Shown: in pieces, positions 36,915-44,511 of the stretch
How the letters are laid out: each line of letters starts with the position of its first letter
Position numbering within the stretch: position 1 is the first letter of the stretch
Source: Methanocorpusculum labreanum Z
GTDB taxonomy: Archaea > Halobacteriota > Methanomicrobia > Methanomicrobiales > Methanocorpusculaceae
Direction of reading: 5' to 3'
NCBI RefSeq assembly: GCF_000015765.1
Contig: NC_008942.1
Location: forward strand, 883,921-947,920
Length of the DNA stretch: 64,000 nt
Made by a program: the position numbers and the translations under genes
The notes under the pieces: generated by a model
The model's database searches: none
What the model saw: the letters and a program-made list of their open reading frames with translations, nothing else
What the model was told of the DNA's origin: nothing

Positions 36915-39002
36915 TTACTTTTTCATAGCAATGTGTTCCAAACATTTTTGACCAGTATTCATTAAATCAGAAAAAGGTATTACTGGGAATATCATGCCAT
37001 CAAAGTGAGACGGGGAGCCATCGTGAGATACGATGAACAGAGATATGATTTGAGGAGGGGAAGTGTATCCAAAGTATTCCTTTACTTCTTTTTGATGTGA
37101 ACAAAGCCATTTATGACGTCTTTGATGTTTATATGCGGGTGTCTTATTGATCTCTTTTCGTGAAAATTTATAATTCAAATCTTCAATTTTTTTCATTTCA
37201 TGAGGAGATAAATAATTTTTACATTCTATTGAATAGAAAATGGAATTATTTAAATCAGCTAACCCTATATCAATATCCCCAATATCTGCCCGACCTTTTA
37301 TTATCTCCTTTGGCTTAAGTGCCCTTCGAACCACAAATGTTGTGTTCTTCTTAAACCAGTTTTCTACAGCCATCTCAAAAGCTTTACCTTCCAGATTTCT
37401 AAATCTTGATATCCATTTATTCATTCTATCAGACTTAGCATCATAACCTCCATGTTGAATATAAAGAAGGAAATCTGTAACAAACACATTCCAACTCCTT
37501 ATTCCAATGACAAGTTCGTTCTCGCCATTCTCACCTGGGATTCTTAGAATAGGATGTGAGTAATAAGAATATTTGTGGTAATGATCTTCAATTTTAATAA
37601 AATCTTCTATTTTATTACTATCAATTTGATCCCATGCTCCTCTCGGTTGCAGACTGAAGAGATTCAATGCATCAAGCCCTTTTTCTTTTGTCCATCCATA
37701 ATCAGCAATCAGTTTCTGGCACAATTGAGATTCAAAGCAAATGCAAAAACAAAATGGTGGCCTAATAGGTAACGATAAAAGACAGGAATTGAACTGATTA
37801 AATTCATTAAATGTGAGTCCAAATTCATCATAAAAAGCAGTTTCAAACTCATTTTTTTCTTTTTCAGAAATTGATAACTTTGGAGAATAAGCTTTATATT
37901 TTCTATTTCGCATTGTTAAAACATCTTTTGTATGTCCCATACGAAAATCCGTCCATTCTGTTGAAAGAGGATAAGATGATGCAACAATTCCACGTATGGT
38001 AAATTTTATCCCAATATTTTTTGATAAATCATTATGAGATAGAAAATTTATTTGAGACATAATATTTCGAATTGAGGTGAATAACACTGCATTTGCCAAT
38101 AATCTACAATAATCATCAGAGGATATTGGGTGATTACCTGTTGGATTTTCAGCGATAGATATCTCAATTAGATGCTGAATGGAATGTTCCAATTCTGTTT
38201 TCAATTGATCTCTTTGAGTGTAGTGTTCAGTAAATATTGATAATATTGAGGATTTGGTATAATCAAAATCCTCCATCTCATAGTATTCCCGAGTGAAAAG
38301 ATAAGCAATGAGTTCATGTTGAGATACAGTCCATGCCAATATATCTCGTATAGGATATTGTGCTATGAGATTGTGTAGTCGCTGATATGTTGCATCAGTA
38401 GCCCATTTAACGAATTTATTCACATTTTCTAAACCATTAAGAGAAGCCCCTATCTTTAGTTCTGGATTATATTCCTGAATTAAAGAGAGCATTTCTTCCT
38501 TCATTATTCCAATATGAATTGGTAGCAAGTTGGGGAGAGACGATATATTTAGGGATGGTTTTGGGAAAAAAACATCTCTCTCGGATATAATTGGTGGTGA
38601 ATGATCATTTAAAGTGGCGTTTTGTATTACTCTATTATTCCATCCCTTTTTACTAAATAAATACTCTTTGGGGAGATAATATCCTAGAAAACCATATTGA
38701 GATGGTAACAGTCCTGCGTGACCTAACTCTTTCTCTTCATCAACAAGAATAGGCAGTATGTTAATGCCCCTTTTACCTTTTAAAGATTTGAGATAGGGAA
38801 TATTATGATTATATCCCAATGGTAATTCTTGATCATTCCATAGATACTGAGTTACAACGGAAATCAGAACTTCTATCAATATACTACAGGCCATCTTTTT
38901 ATCAATATCACCTACAACATATACTGGAAATTGAGGACTGTAGGCCTCCCAATATTCATTATTTACATAACTTAAGTGAATTGTATATTGATATTCGGTC
39001 AT
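36915..39002 (-). CDS. Large protein with C-terminal PD-(D/E)XK nuclease-like domain
   Basis: 695 residues, AT-rich. Residues 1-530 are of no family I recognise. From about 539 (GKAFEMAVENWF) a restriction-endonuclease-like core appears: Glu 543 in the first helix, D578 in GDIDIGLADL, and E593-x-K595 in FYSIECKNYL, the order E...D...ExK of PD-(D/E)XK nucleases. It probably cuts nucleic acid, perhaps under control of the large N-terminal part. It sits alone between the housekeeping run and the toxin/reverse-transcriptase genes, which suggests defence. AT-rich composition is unlike its left neighbours. Confidence 0.7.
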   Translation of the reverse strand: MTEYQYTIHLSYVNNEYWEAYSPQFPVYVVGDIDKKMACSILIEVLISVVTQYLWNDQELPLGYNHNIPYLKSLKGKRGINILPILVDEEKELGHAGLLPSQYGFLGYYLPKEYLFSKKGWNNRVIQNATLNDHSPPIISERDVFFPKPSLNISSLPNLLPIHIGIMKEEMLSLIQEYNPELKIGASLNGLENVNKFVKWATDATYQRLHNLIAQYPIRDILAWTVSQHELIAYLFTREYYEMEDFDYTKSSILSIFTEHYTQRDQLKTELEHSIQHLIEISIAENPTGNHPISSDDYCRLLANAVLFTSIRNIMSQINFLSHNDLSKNIGIKFTIRGIVASSYPLSTEWTDFRMGHTKDVLTMRNRKYKAYSPKLSISEKEKNEFETAFYDEFGLTFNEFNQFNSCLLSLPIRPPFCFCICFESQLCQKLIADYGWTKEKGLDALNLFSLQPRGAWDQIDSNKIEDFIKIEDHYHKYSYYSHPILRIPGENGENELVIGIRSWNVFVTDFLLYIQHGGYDAKSDRMNKWISRFRNLEGKAFEMAVENWFKKNTTFVVRRALKPKEIIKGRADIGDIDIGLADLNNSIFYSIECKNYLSPHEMKKIEDLNYKFSRKEINKTPAYKHQRRHKWLCSHQKEVKEYFGYTSPPQIISLFIVSHDGSPSHFDGMIFPVIPFSDLMNTGQKCLEHIAMKK

Positions 39003-39379: not shown

Positions 39380-39657
39380 TAGTCAAGTGCCGTACGAAGG
39401 GCACATCTTTGTGTGTAAAGAGGAGGGCTATCATGTACTGCGAGGTCCCAGACGTATTTGAGATTGACATTTGCATAGGCATGGATCAGACGGTCTCTCA
39501 TACCTGCCATTTTTCTCCAGGGGATATCGGGATATTGTGTGCGGATCTCTTCAGGGATGTGTTTTGCCGCTTAACTCATGCGATTGACAGCAGCCATGAT
39601 GTTTTCAGATTGTTCGCAGATGTCATCTAAATATGTGAGAATATCCGGTGTTTTCAT
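39380..39657 (-). pseudogene. Broken HepT-like HEPN toxin (DUF86)
   Basis: The frame starts KTPDILTYLDDICEQSENIM, runs into an in-frame TAA (39573-39571), and continues AAKHIPEEIRTQYPDIPWRK then MAGMRDRLIHAYANVNLKYV to a TAA at 39382-39380. The second part is the classic DUF86/HepT end with the RxxxxH ribonuclease motif in RDRLIHAY. Compared with the usual length of about 110-120 residues, roughly 25-35 residues are missing at the stop. Its ATG overlaps the MntA stop (ATGA), as in working HepT-MntA pairs. The toxin is therefore probably inactive. Confidence 0.8.
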
Positions 39658-39983
39658 ACGGCAGCTTTTCCTGTACCGCAGAAGATGACGTCTTTTTGTA
39701 TGTTGGAGCGAATACGCGGTTTGAGATATTCAAAGGAGACAAGGTCGACTTTGCGTTCCAGGATCGATTCAAGATACTCAGCGAGAGCAAGATAATTGTC
39801 GAATGTGTCGAATTCCGGTTTGAATGTATACAGGAGGTCAATGTCACTGTAAGGTGTATCTTCCCCGCGTGCGACTGAACCGAAGAGAGCGAGGAACTCA
39901 ATGCCATACGCTGTCTGGAGAGTTGAAAGAGATGCGGACAGTTGTGTAAGAACGCGGTTTTTGATGCTTACATATTCTGACAT
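39654..39983 (-). CDS. MntA-like minimal nucleotidyltransferase antitoxin
   Basis: 109 residues. The motif GSVARGEDTPYSDIDLL (residues 35-51) is the GSxARGxxxxxSDxD signature of minimal nucleotidyltransferases, with a third acidic residue in KVDLVSF. In HepT-MntA systems this protein neutralises the HEPN ribonuclease by adding AMP residues. The gene is intact while its toxin partner downstream is broken. Confidence 0.88.
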   Translation of the reverse strand: MSEYVSIKNRVLTQLSASLSTLQTAYGIEFLALFGSVARGEDTPYSDIDLLYTFKPEFDTFDNYLALAEYLESILERKVDLVSFEYLKPRIRSNIQKDVIFCGTGKAAV

Positions 39984-40503: not shown

Positions 40504-41247
40504 ATGCAATCCAATCAATTATTCTCAATTATCTCGAATATTTTTAAAACATATTCTCATATGCTTATAGTGGACACGGAAACTACCGGTTTAAATCCAA
40601 AAATAGATCGGATAACTGAATTAGCAGCAATCAAATTCGATAAATACGGTAATAAATCAGTGATGGATGAATACATCTCGCTTCCGAATGACATTTGTTA
40701 TCCTGAAAATGTCCAAGAAATGACTGGGATCACACCAGAGATATTAGAACTGAAGGGACATCCCGAAGAAGAAATTGCATGGATGTTTGCTATGATGCTG
40801 AAAAGTCCCGGGCGTGTCCTTTTAGTGACACATAATGCTCAGTTTGATCTCCGTTTTATTCAGGAGATGCTATCTCGACACCGTTATGTATTTCCAAATG
40901 GGTGGGGTGTCATTGATACTTTAACTGTATTTAGGGATAGAAAACCACAACCACACAGACTCTCTGATGCAATTTCATATTATGGTCTTGATGGAGTGAA
41001 AAATAGTCATAGGGCAATTGATGATGTAGTTGCATTATGTGCCGTTTTTGATGCGATGTGTCAGGAACAAAATGATTTAGATGAATATATCAATCTTATC
41101 GGAGTCTATGGTAAATCAGAATTATTTGCATATAAAATTCCCGGATTACAATATTGGGGACAGGAGATAACTGGCAATCCAGAGGGTAAACTCCCGGATC
41201 TAATTAAGAAATATAATCAAGACATTTCCAAAATTGAGAGAGTATGA
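40504..41247 (+). CDS. DnaQ-family DEDDh 3'-5' exonuclease
   Basis: 247 residues. All five active-site residues are visible: D24 and E26 in LIVDTETTGL, D116 in HNAQFDLRF, H170 and D175 in SHRAIDDVVA. The protein is like DNA polymerase III epsilon or Cas2-fused/defence-associated exonucleases and should degrade DNA or RNA 3'-5'. The last 65 residues are not recognised. AT-rich. It ends nine bases from the convergent reverse-transcriptase gene, and it is not next to any polymerase gene, so a role with the defence genes is more likely than in replication. Confidence 0.88.
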   Translation: MQSNQLFSIISNIFKTYSHMLIVDTETTGLNPKIDRITELAAIKFDKYGNKSVMDEYISLPNDICYPENVQEMTGITPEILELKGHPEEEIAWMFAMMLKSPGRVLLVTHNAQFDLRFIQEMLSRHRYVFPNGWGVIDTLTVFRDRKPQPHRLSDAISYYGLDGVKNSHRAIDDVVALCAVFDAMCQEQNDLDEYINLIGVYGKSELFAYKIPGLQYWGQEITGNPEGKLPDLIKKYNQDISKIERV

Positions 41248-41256
41248 TTTTCACTC

Positions 41257-44200
41257 TCACTCAACACTACGTTCAATGACCTTCTTAATATCGAAACCGG
41301 GGGGTAAAGGTTTGAAGCTATTATCTGTCTCATCATATTGATGGGACTGGAATTTACGTAATGCATCAATATCCAAATCACCTGCAAGAAGCGTACAGTT
41401 TGTACCACCTCCGATTTGACCAATATTTCTTTCTTCGTGTTTCTTTGGTTGAATGATCCTAGAACATCCGTATTCAGACGTGTTTGAATAAATCACATAA
41501 CAATGGATATCCCGTACAACGGATTCAAGAATATCCATAAAATAATTCACGTCACGATTCACAGAACAAGCAATCAGGAAGTCTAACTCGGAGCGAAATA
41601 TAGCTCGGTGCTGAATGTCTGCAAGCTCAAAGCAATTATAGATTGTAAACTGATTCCCTCTCCAATTGTAAAGATGATATGTAGAGGTTCCCAAATCCGG
41701 AAGAGAATAACCACACATATTGAGTTCTTTTTCTTCCTGTGGACCGTAATGATTTTTGATTCTAAGGGATACGCAACAGGATTTATATTTATCATTTATC
41801 TGGAATGGAAGGAGAGCGGTTGTCAGATTGAAAGCGATACATTTTTCACTGCCGGTATTGTTCGATGGTGAAGTATCCGGGCTTTTTGTATTATAGATAT
41901 ATTCAAGACCAAATACTAGCCCAATTTGATGTTGTTTTGACCAATGCGTCAATTTTGGTAACCAACGATTTGGAATGGAACATTCTGGGAATATCACCAG
42001 ATCACATTTGTCTTTGACCGCCGAATTTAATGCCTGAGAGATTAACAACCAGCGCTCTAGAGAAATGTTTGGGGGCATTTCCAATGGTTCAAAACTTTGT
42101 CTCAAGTTTTTCTCAGTAATCCGAAGATTTACAAGACCAACCCGAATTTTTTTCAGAGGTTTGTCATCAGAATATATCGTTATTTTTGTTGGATGGACTG
42201 GATTGGGGTTTTCCCCATATTCCATACAGAGATATGGGGTTACCGTAACATGAGAATCATATTGTGAGCCCCAATTATTATACGTCCTTTTGCCAAAAAT
42301 AGAATTTGCTTTCTGCAAATAACAACATAATGGACTATCACTAGTAGAACACGTGCTCTTTGAACACTCAGTAAGATGGTTTTCACTCTTGAGATTTTTC
42401 AAAGCAAAAAATAGTTGATATTCGTAAAGATGAATAAATCGTGGAGTTGTATCCAGCTTTTGATTATCCAATTCTAAAAAGTTTAAAGAATCCGTATTGA
42501 ATACATCAACATCAAATAAATCTCCATCATAATTTTCCAGATAGTTGAGTAGTGGATATATCACATAATGTTGCGGAAAAAGATTCGTGGCACGAAATGA
42601 ATCAATGATATATTTTATAATGAGAGCTTCGGAGAATTCGTTATGAGTTGATTGGAGATATTTTTTCAGAATTGAAGATATTTTCTTCGCAAATTTATCC
42701 CGACTATCCCCGTCAAAGAGGGCGAGAGGTTGAAACATAGAGTATAGAAGATATTTTTGTAAAGTATCCTGAATGTTATTGGACAATTCATCCAAGATCA
42801 TTTTTTCACTTTTATTTATTTCCTCCTTTCCGTCCTTATTCACAGGATTGAAATCACTTGATGGTTTAAGATGGGCAATGTGCTCTAAAAGTTCACCACT
42901 CACGGCAAATAATTCATCCTCCTGCTCTTGTTTTTTGGAAAACAACAAGATACTAAACATCTTTTCCCATACACGCATATAGGTGAGATAGTTATTTCCC
43001 CGCAAATCATTGAACATGTTTTTTGTGAGTGCCCCTATTTTTTCAATCGGTTTGCTGCACAGAGAGATATGTGATATCTGTTTTGAGAGAACAATGGCTA
43101 GTTTCGAATCGTCAATCACTAATTTCTGTAGATTACGCAGTTTGTTTGTTGAACCATCAGAAAACACTAATTGATGCATTCCTGTGTCTTGTGTGTCAAT
43201 AATTGACTCTTCCGGCAAATATTGAAACACACTAACATTTTCTTTAATTTTTTTCTTAAATAATCTCAATATTGCCGTAGAGTGGTTTGGATCTACATGA
43301 TAAAGCATTACTTTGTTATTTTGGACCGCAATGCGTGAATTTGTAAATCTGCTATCATTTAATCTGTATTCTTTATCACCGCTAATTTCAGAAATTTTAT
43401 AATTTAATGTAAGTTGTACATCTCGCGTTTTTGGTTCGGATATAAGTCCGCTATCTACAAGATATTTTTTGATTATTTCCTCTTTTGAAGGTGAATCATT
43501 ATCATTTACTTTATCTTTTGTGTTATATTGCGTTCGGGCAAATACGAAAATACAATCATCAACATATCTCCCGTAATATCTTGGAGAGACATCCTTTATT
43601 ACTGCCTTATCAAATTCTTTGAGATGCCAATTAGCTAAAATTCCCGATGAAAATAGACCTATTGGCAGAAATTTATTTATTTCTCTGTCTTTAATAGTAC
43701 GGTTTGTAACTGAGATATAATTCTTAACTATCTCGAAGTATTTCTCATGAATCCGTAACAGGATGTTAGTTAAAAACAAGTTTGTTTGTAAATTGCCTTT
43801 GAAAGTTGCTTCTTCTGATTTTTTGGTGATATGTGCCTCAATCTCCCCAAAATCACCTTCAATATGATAATAGAATTGCTTGAAATCAAGGGTAAGAATA
43901 TCTACTATTTCATTATTTTCTATAGCTTTATTTGCAAAATCTAATGCCTTATTTTGCCAAAAGGCATATTGTTTGCCATAAATTTTCATCAGATGACTGC
44001 TCGTATCTTTGTTTTTTCTTTCACAAAGATTTTCATGAACACGATTTCCAAAACAACAATCACCTAGTTCCTCATCAAGGTATGCTCCAACCTTCATAAT
44101 CCAGAGGACATCCAGCATATGAAGCGGGATCGGCATGTCAATATAATAATTAAGACCATGCCAGTAATAAATTTCAGAAGAAACTACATTTGAGAGTCCA

Positions 44201-44511
44201 TAAATCTCGGTATTCTCAGCATTCTTTATTGCTTCTTTATTACGATACGGTGAAACTGATTTGGGAAGAACATAAAATGAAATTTGATTTATCCAGTCAT
44301 CAATAACTTTCTTTAATTCATCTGAAATTGAGATTTCAGGTGCTGTTATACATTCGAATATTTTAAGGAGCTTGTCTTTCTCTGCAGAATCATATTCATA
44401 CAAAGCAAGTTTCTTTTTTAAGAAGAGGTCGGAATTATAGTAAACTGCCTGTTTAAGTTTCCTATATACAGTATTATATAGTATATTGTTTAATGTTTCG
44501 GGAGATGTCAC
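41257..44511 (-). CDS. Reverse transcriptase fused to nitrilase-like domain (DRT type 1-like)
   Basis: 1084 residues. Reverse-transcriptase motif A is ILTLDFKQFYYHI (D209), motif B LPIGLFSSGILANWHLKEFD (282-301) and motif C RYVDDCIFVF (Y316-V-D318-D319). A helical middle of about 400 residues follows, with a Cys cluster (C717, C721, C729, C730). The C-terminal domain (about 785-1084) carries the Glu-Lys-Cys nitrilase triad: E843 in VIFPECSIP, K919 in LRIKNHYGP, C960 in IYNCFELADIQHR. RT plus C-terminal nitrilase is the layout of bacterial defence-associated RT type 1 (UG1) and relatives. No group II intron, retron RNA or CRISPR is next to it. Archaeal members are unusual. Confidence 0.88.
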   Translation of the reverse strand: MTSPETLNNILYNTVYRKLKQAVYYNSDLFLKKKLALYEYDSAEKDKLLKIFECITAPEISISDELKKVIDDWINQISFYVLPKSVSPYRNKEAIKNAENTEIYGLSNVVSSEIYYWHGLNYYIDMPIPLHMLDVLWIMKVGAYLDEELGDCCFGNRVHENLCERKNKDTSSHLMKIYGKQYAFWQNKALDFANKAIENNEIVDILTLDFKQFYYHIEGDFGEIEAHITKKSEEATFKGNLQTNLFLTNILLRIHEKYFEIVKNYISVTNRTIKDREINKFLPIGLFSSGILANWHLKEFDKAVIKDVSPRYYGRYVDDCIFVFARTQYNTKDKVNDNDSPSKEEIIKKYLVDSGLISEPKTRDVQLTLNYKISEISGDKEYRLNDSRFTNSRIAVQNNKVMLYHVDPNHSTAILRLFKKKIKENVSVFQYLPEESIIDTQDTGMHQLVFSDGSTNKLRNLQKLVIDDSKLAIVLSKQISHISLCSKPIEKIGALTKNMFNDLRGNNYLTYMRVWEKMFSILLFSKKQEQEDELFAVSGELLEHIAHLKPSSDFNPVNKDGKEEINKSEKMILDELSNNIQDTLQKYLLYSMFQPLALFDGDSRDKFAKKISSILKKYLQSTHNEFSEALIIKYIIDSFRATNLFPQHYVIYPLLNYLENYDGDLFDVDVFNTDSLNFLELDNQKLDTTPRFIHLYEYQLFFALKNLKSENHLTECSKSTCSTSDSPLCCYLQKANSIFGKRTYNNWGSQYDSHVTVTPYLCMEYGENPNPVHPTKITIYSDDKPLKKIRVGLVNLRITEKNLRQSFEPLEMPPNISLERWLLISQALNSAVKDKCDLVIFPECSIPNRWLPKLTHWSKQHQIGLVFGLEYIYNTKSPDTSPSNNTGSEKCIAFNLTTALLPFQINDKYKSCCVSLRIKNHYGPQEEKELNMCGYSLPDLGTSTYHLYNWRGNQFTIYNCFELADIQHRAIFRSELDFLIACSVNRDVNYFMDILESVVRDIHCYVIYSNTSEYGCSRIIQPKKHEERNIGQIGGGTNCTLLAGDLDIDALRKFQSHQYDETDNSFKPLPPGFDIKKVIERSVE

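What the first reader, a model, noticed from the sequence alone, without database searches (positions are those of the whole stretch)
40504..44511. DEDDh exonuclease paired tail-to-tail with the RT-nitrilase gene
The exonuclease (active residues D24, E26, D116, H170, D175) ends nine bases from the RT gene stop, and both are AT-rich. An exonuclease beside a defence RT could process its cDNA or remove it in uninfected cells. I know of no described DRT1 system with a convergent DnaQ partner, so this could be a new two-component variant.
Basis: inference. Interest (0 to 1): 0.75.

Follow-up and report, generated by a model that had tools for sequence, protein, structure and literature searches.

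The report
Archaeal defence RT with exonuclease partner
A methanogenic archaeon carries an antiviral DNA-making enzyme side by side with a DNA-trimming enzyme, and the same pairing turns up again in related archaea in different gene orders, which suggests that the two work together, perhaps with the trimmer holding the DNA-maker in check.

Summary
A DEDDh 3'-5' exonuclease (40504-41247, +) ends nine bases from the stop of a UG5-nitrilase reverse transcriptase (41257-44511, -). The RT is closer to UG5-nitrilase than to DRT1, though both are class 3 defence RTs.

The pair recurs. Of 6 RT-bearing genomes among 232 in the order, 4 have a DEDDh gene immediately beside the RT. Three arrangements are seen: convergent (2), exo upstream (1), exo downstream (1). 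The fourth genome (Methanolinea) uses a different DEDDh subfamily. The RT-linked exonucleases of Methanocorpusculum form one clade, apart from virus-like relatives, and are under purifying selection. A close relative has this chromosomal site without the pair and carries its own diverged pair elsewhere. The exonuclease is not obligatory: one Methanocorpusculum RT lacks it, and none of 77 other relatives examined, nearly all bacterial, has it adjacent.

Best mechanism (inferred): the exonuclease trims the RT's protein-linked ssDNA from its free 3' end, a linked counterpart of host ExoI, which restrains DRT9 in E. coli. Novelty: a new two-gene variant of a known kind. No activity was tested.

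The parts
40504..41247 (+). DEDDh (DnaQ-fold) 3'-5' exonuclease gene, 247 aa; catalytic D24, E26, D115, H169, D174
   Evidence: Pfam RNase_T 1.9e-24, PADLOC DEDDh, invariant residues, model pLDDT 88.9 matching DnaQ, TREX2 and ExoI
41257..44511 (-). UG5-nitrilase (class 3) defence reverse transcriptase gene, 1084 aa
   Evidence: PADLOC RT_UG5-nitrilase 2.9e-212; profile match to DRT1 structure 9yfd 3.8e-29; model pLDDT 81.2
43555..43566 (-). RT catalytic motif YVDD (residues 316-319; D318/D319 align with D324/D325 of DRT1)
41281..42162 (-). Nitrilase-fold effector half (residues 784-1077) with E843, K919, E926, C960 and the C-terminal K1067...PPGF stretch that aligns with the DRT1 lid
   Evidence: structure matches Z 20.9-22.9; residues at least 90% conserved in 42 sequences; alignment to 9yfd
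41248..41256 (.). nine bases between the two convergent stop codons
40222..40268 (+). left copy of a 47-nt dispersed repeat that brackets the pair
   Evidence: 87% identical to the right copy; 11 places in the genome
44599..44645 (+). right copy of the same repeat

Best explanation
A two-gene variant of a class 3 (UG5-nitrilase) defence reverse transcriptase. Most likely working: the RT adds short untemplated ssDNA to itself, which sets the oligomeric state of its nitrilase effector. The linked DEDDh exonuclease digests that DNA from its only free end, the 3' end, and so sets adduct length and holds the system below its firing threshold in uninfected cells. A virus that inhibits, out-competes or diverts the exonuclease changes the adduct and releases the nitrilase, giving abortive infection. 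Shown here: the domains, the conserved catalytic residues, the recurrent linkage, and purifying selection on both genes. Inferred: substrate, direction of control, trigger and the defence phenotype.
For: Adjacent DEDDh gene in 4 of 6 RT-bearing genomes among 232 of the order, in three gene orders and from two DEDDh subfamilies. The RT-linked family-A exonucleases form one clade, 95/89. Exonuclease dN/dS 0.22 and 0.11, RT 0.34 and 0.22, in two close pairs. The pair sits at different places in close relatives. Fold like ssDNA 3'-5' exonucleases, including ExoI with dA16. Purified class 3 RTs make protein-linked, template-free DNA (PMC13275509). Host ExoI restrains DRT9 and RecBCD restrains DRT3 (PMC12483538; PMC13174585). 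No ExoI match in 9 of 9 archaeal RT hosts searched.
Against: G018 has the RT without any linked exonuclease, and 77 of 80 other loci have none adjacent; 23 of 31 bacterial RT hosts tested also lack ExoI, so absence of ExoI does not predict linkage. In DRT1 the DNA adduct imposes dormancy (PMC13275509), so removing it might activate rather than restrain. The convergent order gives no shared transcript. Substrate and activity are unknown. The exonuclease tree does not resolve the inner order.
Confidence: 0.5

Rival explanations
1. The exonuclease is needed for firing rather than restraint: it removes the dormancy-imposing adduct from the RT filament, or matures the adduct to a working length, when infection starts.
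For: In DRT1 the adducts drive a quiescent filament and the ssDNA in vivo is shorter than in vitro (PMC13275509). The linkage data fit equally well.
Against: The linked nuclease is missing in G018 and in the 77 other loci, so firing cannot depend on it in general. The measured precedents, ExoI and RecBCD, are restraining.
Confidence: 0.2
2. The exonuclease is an independent gene (DNA repair or a separate nuclease defence) that shares a defence island or travels with the RT by chance.
For: The island is AT-rich and variable, and holds other defence-type genes. RT and exonuclease are separately dispensable in some genomes. A dispersed repeat brackets the pair.
Against: The partner is immediately adjacent in four genomes, in three orders, from two subfamilies; no other genome of the 232 apart from G146 (viral-like contig) has family A above 200 bits. 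The pair lies in different surroundings in each genome.
Confidence: 0.22
3. The exonuclease is a captured viral counter-defence or replication gene that blunts the RT; the chromosomal copy is a remnant or a decoy.
For: Its nearest relatives without an RT are virus-like: 49 viral-contig loci, best about 43% identity; phage matches annotated as exonuclease or DNA polymerase III subunit; PHROG 192; copies among virus-like genes in G019 and G146.
Against: No RT lies in any of the 49 viral loci. The RT-linked copies keep all catalytic residues and are under purifying selection in RT-bearing chromosomes.
Confidence: 0.08

Closest known systems
DRT1 (UG1), class 3 RT-nitrilase (PMC13275509; PDB 9yfd)
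   Same: RT plus C-terminal nitrilase; YVDD, catalytic cysteine and C-terminal lid lysine align.
   Different: Best HMM is UG5-nitrilase. The paper says its priming serine S402 is not conserved in other class 3 RTs. Its reported partner, in about 18% of cases, is the membrane protein gene drt1b, not an exonuclease.
UG5-nitrilase RT (PADLOC DRT set)
   Same: Family of this RT (2.9e-212); 466 relatives confirmed in one scan.
   Different: The 77 relatives examined outside the paired ones have no adjacent DEDDh gene.
DRT9 with host ExoI (PMC12483538) and DRT3 with host RecBCD (PMC13174585)
   Same: Proposed logic: a nuclease removes RT-made DNA in uninfected cells.
   Different: There the nuclease is an unlinked host gene and the RT belongs to other classes; here the nuclease is linked and its effect is not shown.
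UG9 RT with PRK14975 neighbour (94% co-occurrence in PMC8934634, passage read)
   Same: A UG-type RT with a recurrent neighbour; PRK14975 is, from memory, a bifunctional 3'-5' exonuclease/DNA polymerase.
   Different: Other RT class and other partner; near-universal there, lineage-restricted here.

Membership tests
UG5-nitrilase (class 3) defence RT | RT domain with YVDD and best match to the UG5-nitrilase model | tested here: met
   PADLOC 2.9e-212; Y316-D319 conserved
UG5-nitrilase (class 3) defence RT | C-terminal nitrilase fold with Glu/Lys/Glu/Cys | tested here: met
   Z 20.9-22.9 to nitrilase-superfamily structures; E843, K919, E926, C960 at least 90% conserved; their assignment as the tetrad follows family knowledge and, for C960, the 9yfd alignment
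[quoted passage not shown]
   needs expression and assay; known for DRT1, and DNA synthesis also for DRT5S/L (PMC13275509)
DRT1 (UG1) in the strict sense | best match to DRT1 rather than to another class 3 family | tested here: not met
   Drt1a 1.3e-21 against UG5-nitrilase 2.9e-212
DRT1 (UG1) in the strict sense | priming serine equivalent to S402 | tested here: inconclusive
   the alignment to 9yfd stops before that residue; the paper says it is not conserved in other class 3 RTs
DEDDh exonuclease | five acidic/histidine catalytic residues and DnaQ-like fold | tested here: met
DEDDh exonuclease | 3'-5' exonuclease activity and substrate (ssDNA or other) | not testable with these tools
   needs in vitro assay
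ExoI (SbcB) | match to the ExoI model over its length | tested here: not met
   39 bits over residues 18-126 against a cut-off of 260; 247 aa against a 477-position model
Nuclease-guarded DRT (DRT9/ExoI logic) | exonuclease degrades the RT product and its loss makes the RT toxic | not testable with these tools
   only linkage, conservation and precedent are in hand

The most novel reading that the evidence does not exclude
Archaeal class 3 defence RTs carry their own linked nuclease in place of the unlinked host guards known in E. coli (ExoI for DRT9, RecBCD for DRT3). A virus-type DEDDh exonuclease (family A), a second DEDDh subfamily, or a RecB-like UvrD-PDDEXK helicase-nuclease was recruited independently next to the RT, as a linked antitoxin and infection sensor of protein-primed DNA synthesis.
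Probability: 0.3. Interest if true: 0.8.

Novelty: new variant of a known kind. Interest (0 to 1): 0.62.

Why it matters
How RT-made DNA is kept harmless before infection is an open question for defence RTs. Published work points to unlinked housekeeping nucleases (ExoI, RecBCD). A linked nuclease would make that control part of the system, extend it to class 3 RTs and to archaea, and offer a two-gene set that can be tested with one catalytic mutant of each gene.

Tried and rejected
Label 'DRT1': rejected in the strict sense, as UG5-nitrilase scores far better.

Strictly convergent unit: rejected; other orders exist.

Family-A exonuclease (over 200 bits) was found in 3 of the 25 genomes of the genus, all three RT-bearing; an extra copy in G019 lies elsewhere. 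A fourth congener (G002) has only a distant DEDDh gene (about 50 bits).

Absence of ExoI as a full explanation: weakened, since 23 of 31 bacterial hosts tested lack it without a linked exonuclease (I gave it 40 genomes: 6 genome handles and 34 of the 80 loci).

Shared branching order of RT and exonuclease as proof of co-inheritance: not upheld. The RT tree rejects the order expected from the flanking genes (AU p 0.001), and also one clade of all exo-bearing RTs without G018 (p 0.003; both tests were named after a first tree had been seen). The exonuclease tree is unresolved inside the clade (91/84, 48/15 for the opposite order).

Repeats as a mobile-element boundary: weak, since the bracketing repeat has 11 places in the genome.

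Wider search in the phylum: only the four already known paired genomes among 392 sampled; G018 and G208 are not among its matches, perhaps because they were not sampled.

Plasmid searches: RT 7 records, all under 60% identity and none with one place covering 80% of the query; exonuclease 120 records, all under 60% identity. I did not look at the neighbours of these places. The viral scan with the RT gave 80 of 119 loci, mostly short RT-motif matches; I did not follow them.

DRT1 structure 9yfd is not in the listed fold-search matches (library to April 2026), so a fold comparison with it was not made; only the sequence profile.

Literature: no linked exonuclease with an RT-nitrilase was found in searches (search listings, and passages of four papers: PMC13275509, PMC13174585, PMC12483538, PMC8934634). 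The survey by Mestre and others (recalled, tried as 10.1093/nar/gkac467) is not held, so the pairing may be described there. Searches (Methanocorpusculum with RT; retron processing) gave nothing used.
Full report
WHAT IS THERE. The window lies in a single-contig genome of 1,804,962 bases; from memory this is the size of Methanocorpusculum labreanum Z. The exonuclease is at 40504-41247 (+) and the RT at 41257-44511 (-), with nine bases between the stop codons. Both are AT-rich against their flanks. The exonuclease is an RNase_T/DEDDh protein. Its model (pLDDT 88.9) matches a DnaQ domain (Z 20.1, rmsd 2.1, 169 residues), TREX2 (Z 18.8, rmsd 2.7, 186 residues) and E. coli ExoI bound to dA16 (Z 18.6, rmsd 4.0, 209 residues). 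The RT is best matched by UG5-nitrilase (2.9e-212) and only weakly by Drt1a. Its family profile finds DRT1 structure 9yfd at 3.8e-29; YVDD, the catalytic cysteine (C960) and the lid lysine (K1067) align. The nitrilase half matches solved nitrilase-superfamily enzymes (Z 20.9-22.9), and the RT half weakly matches DRT9 and retron RTs.

DOES THE PAIR RECUR. In the order, 6 of 232 genomes hold the RT. An immediately adjacent DEDDh gene is present in 4 of the 6. The window and G019 are convergent, with 9 and 117 bases between the genes. In G012 the exonuclease precedes the RT on the same strand (56 bases). G208 has a UvrD-PDDEXK helicase-nuclease gene overlapping the RT start by 20 bases. Two short contigs labelled Bacteroidales (L017) and Bacilli (L023) also carry the pair. 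L017 is 89% (RT part) and 94% (exonuclease) identical to the window and continues into the same flanking gene; the L023 exonuclease is 90% identical to that of G012. I take both as mis-binned Methanocorpusculum DNA and do not count them as independent.

WHERE IT DOES NOT RECUR. The genome-contig scan confirmed 466 relatives and kept 80. With a family model and a broader DEDDh model, an adjacent DEDDh gene appears in 3 of the 80 (L017, L019, L023) and in none of the other 77. L072 and L080 have DEDDh-containing genes several kb away. Of the 83 RT loci scanned (the 80 plus L013-L015), 65 have at least 700 bases on both sides, so a few neighbours could be missed. In a neighbour clustering over 83 loci (two duplicates removed, L262 and L263 added) the commonest neighbours were genes that I recognise by eye as type I restriction subunits (14, 11 and 10 loci for three clusters), and UvrD-like helicases in 6 (helicases confirmed).

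HISTORY. The five RT-linked family-A exonucleases form one clade (95/89) against 39 relatives without an RT neighbour. In the RT tree the Methanocorpusculum RTs form one clade with Methanolinea as nearest; G018, without an exonuclease, is nested inside. This suggests loss in G018, or separate gains. The flanking DNA of the window is 86-87% identical to G012, yet G012 lacks the pair at this site; between the flanks it has about 1.5 kb with an intact HEPN-MNT pair. Its own pair sits on another contig and is only 51% (exonuclease) and 47% (RT) identical. So the pair does not follow the host chromosome. The pair in the window is bracketed by 47-nt direct repeats, but that element is dispersed (11 places). 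dN/dS is 0.22 (exonuclease) and 0.34 (RT part) between the window and L017, and 0.11 and 0.22 between G012 and L023.

ORIGIN OF THE EXONUCLEASE. Its nearest relatives without an RT are virus-like: 49 viral-contig loci, phage records such as Faecalibacterium phage FP_Lagaffe (43%), PHROG 192, and copies among virus-like genes in G019 and G146 ('virus-like' is my reading of the neighbours). None of the 49 viral loci contains the RT. Capture from a virus-type replication module is likely, but the tree is not rooted.

MECHANISM. From PMC13275509 (abstract, passages and sections 5, 8, 9, 10 and 18 read): class 3 DRTs make protein-linked, template-free DNA. In DRT1 the adducts (about 17-30 nt, native or after ExoI treatment) promote a dormant filament, and RT and nitrilase activity are both needed for defence. 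From PMC12483538 (section 7 and passages read): ExoI degrades DRT9 poly-dA, its gene is needed for viability with DRT9, and a phage 3'-end binder triggers the system. From PMC13174585 (section 9 and passages read): RecBCD restrains DRT3. Protein-linked DNA has only its 3' end free, which is the end that a DEDDh enzyme attacks (family knowledge). I therefore prefer a linked guard exonuclease (0.5) over an activator or maturation role (0.2), independence (0.22) and captured counter-defence (0.08). The archaeal hosts examined lack ExoI (0 of 9 have a match), but so do 23 of 31 bacterial ones, so this is context, not proof.

WIDER PATTERN, EXPLORATORY. Of the nine archaeal RT loci read, six have a nuclease of DEDDh or UvrD-PDDEXK type next to the RT: window, G019, G012 and G222 (DEDDh), G208 and L062 (UvrD-PDDEXK); G018, L071 and L074 do not. 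I did not survey all nuclease kinds beside the bacterial RTs, so no rate is compared. This is the basis of the novel case and nothing more.

VERDICT. It is a new two-gene variant of a known class, lineage-restricted and untested in the laboratory. In the literature searched I found no description of it; the main survey of UG/Abi RTs was not available.

Noticed in passing
window 36915-39002 (-): AT-rich 695-aa ORF in the same island with no Pfam, PADLOC or NCBIfam match; by eye its C-terminal part reads like a PD-(D/E)XK nuclease.
   Followed up: partly
window 39383-39983 (-): A minimal nucleotidyltransferase (PADLOC PDC-S09) whose HEPN-type partner is broken in the window by a stop and a deletion, while an intact copy exists at the same site in G012 (L311).
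   Followed up: partly
L263:7673-13787; L062:4412-14555: In two other archaea the UG5-nitrilase RT is flanked by a UvrD-PDDEXK helicase-nuclease gene (overlapping by 20 bases in L263); in L062 a second UvrD gene follows 18 bases downstream.
   Followed up: partly
L262:6803-11574: Methanolinea three-gene set RT, DEDDh exonuclease, PD-(D/E)XK nuclease on one strand, facing an AddA-like helicase gene.
   Followed up: partly
L016:8804-9583; L264:2854-3549: Family-A exonucleases without an RT, among genes that look viral, in G019 and G146.
   Followed up: partly
L022, L024, L031, L036, L040, L045, L072, L090, L096 among others: Many bacterial UG5-nitrilase RT genes sit inside or beside what look like type I restriction-modification operons (HsdS-like gene in 14 of 83 loci; names by eye).
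   Followed up: partly
L069:9551-13248: RT followed by an OLD-TOPRIM gene and a UvrD gene, which from memory resembles the Gabija system.
   Followed up: no
window 13037, 14607, 21626, 40242, 44619: A dispersed G+C-rich intergenic repeat, 11 places in the genome and 5 core matches in the window.
   Followed up: partly
L017 and L023 (whole): Short contigs filed under Bacteroidales and Bacilli MAGs that look like mis-binned Methanocorpusculum DNA.
   Followed up: partly
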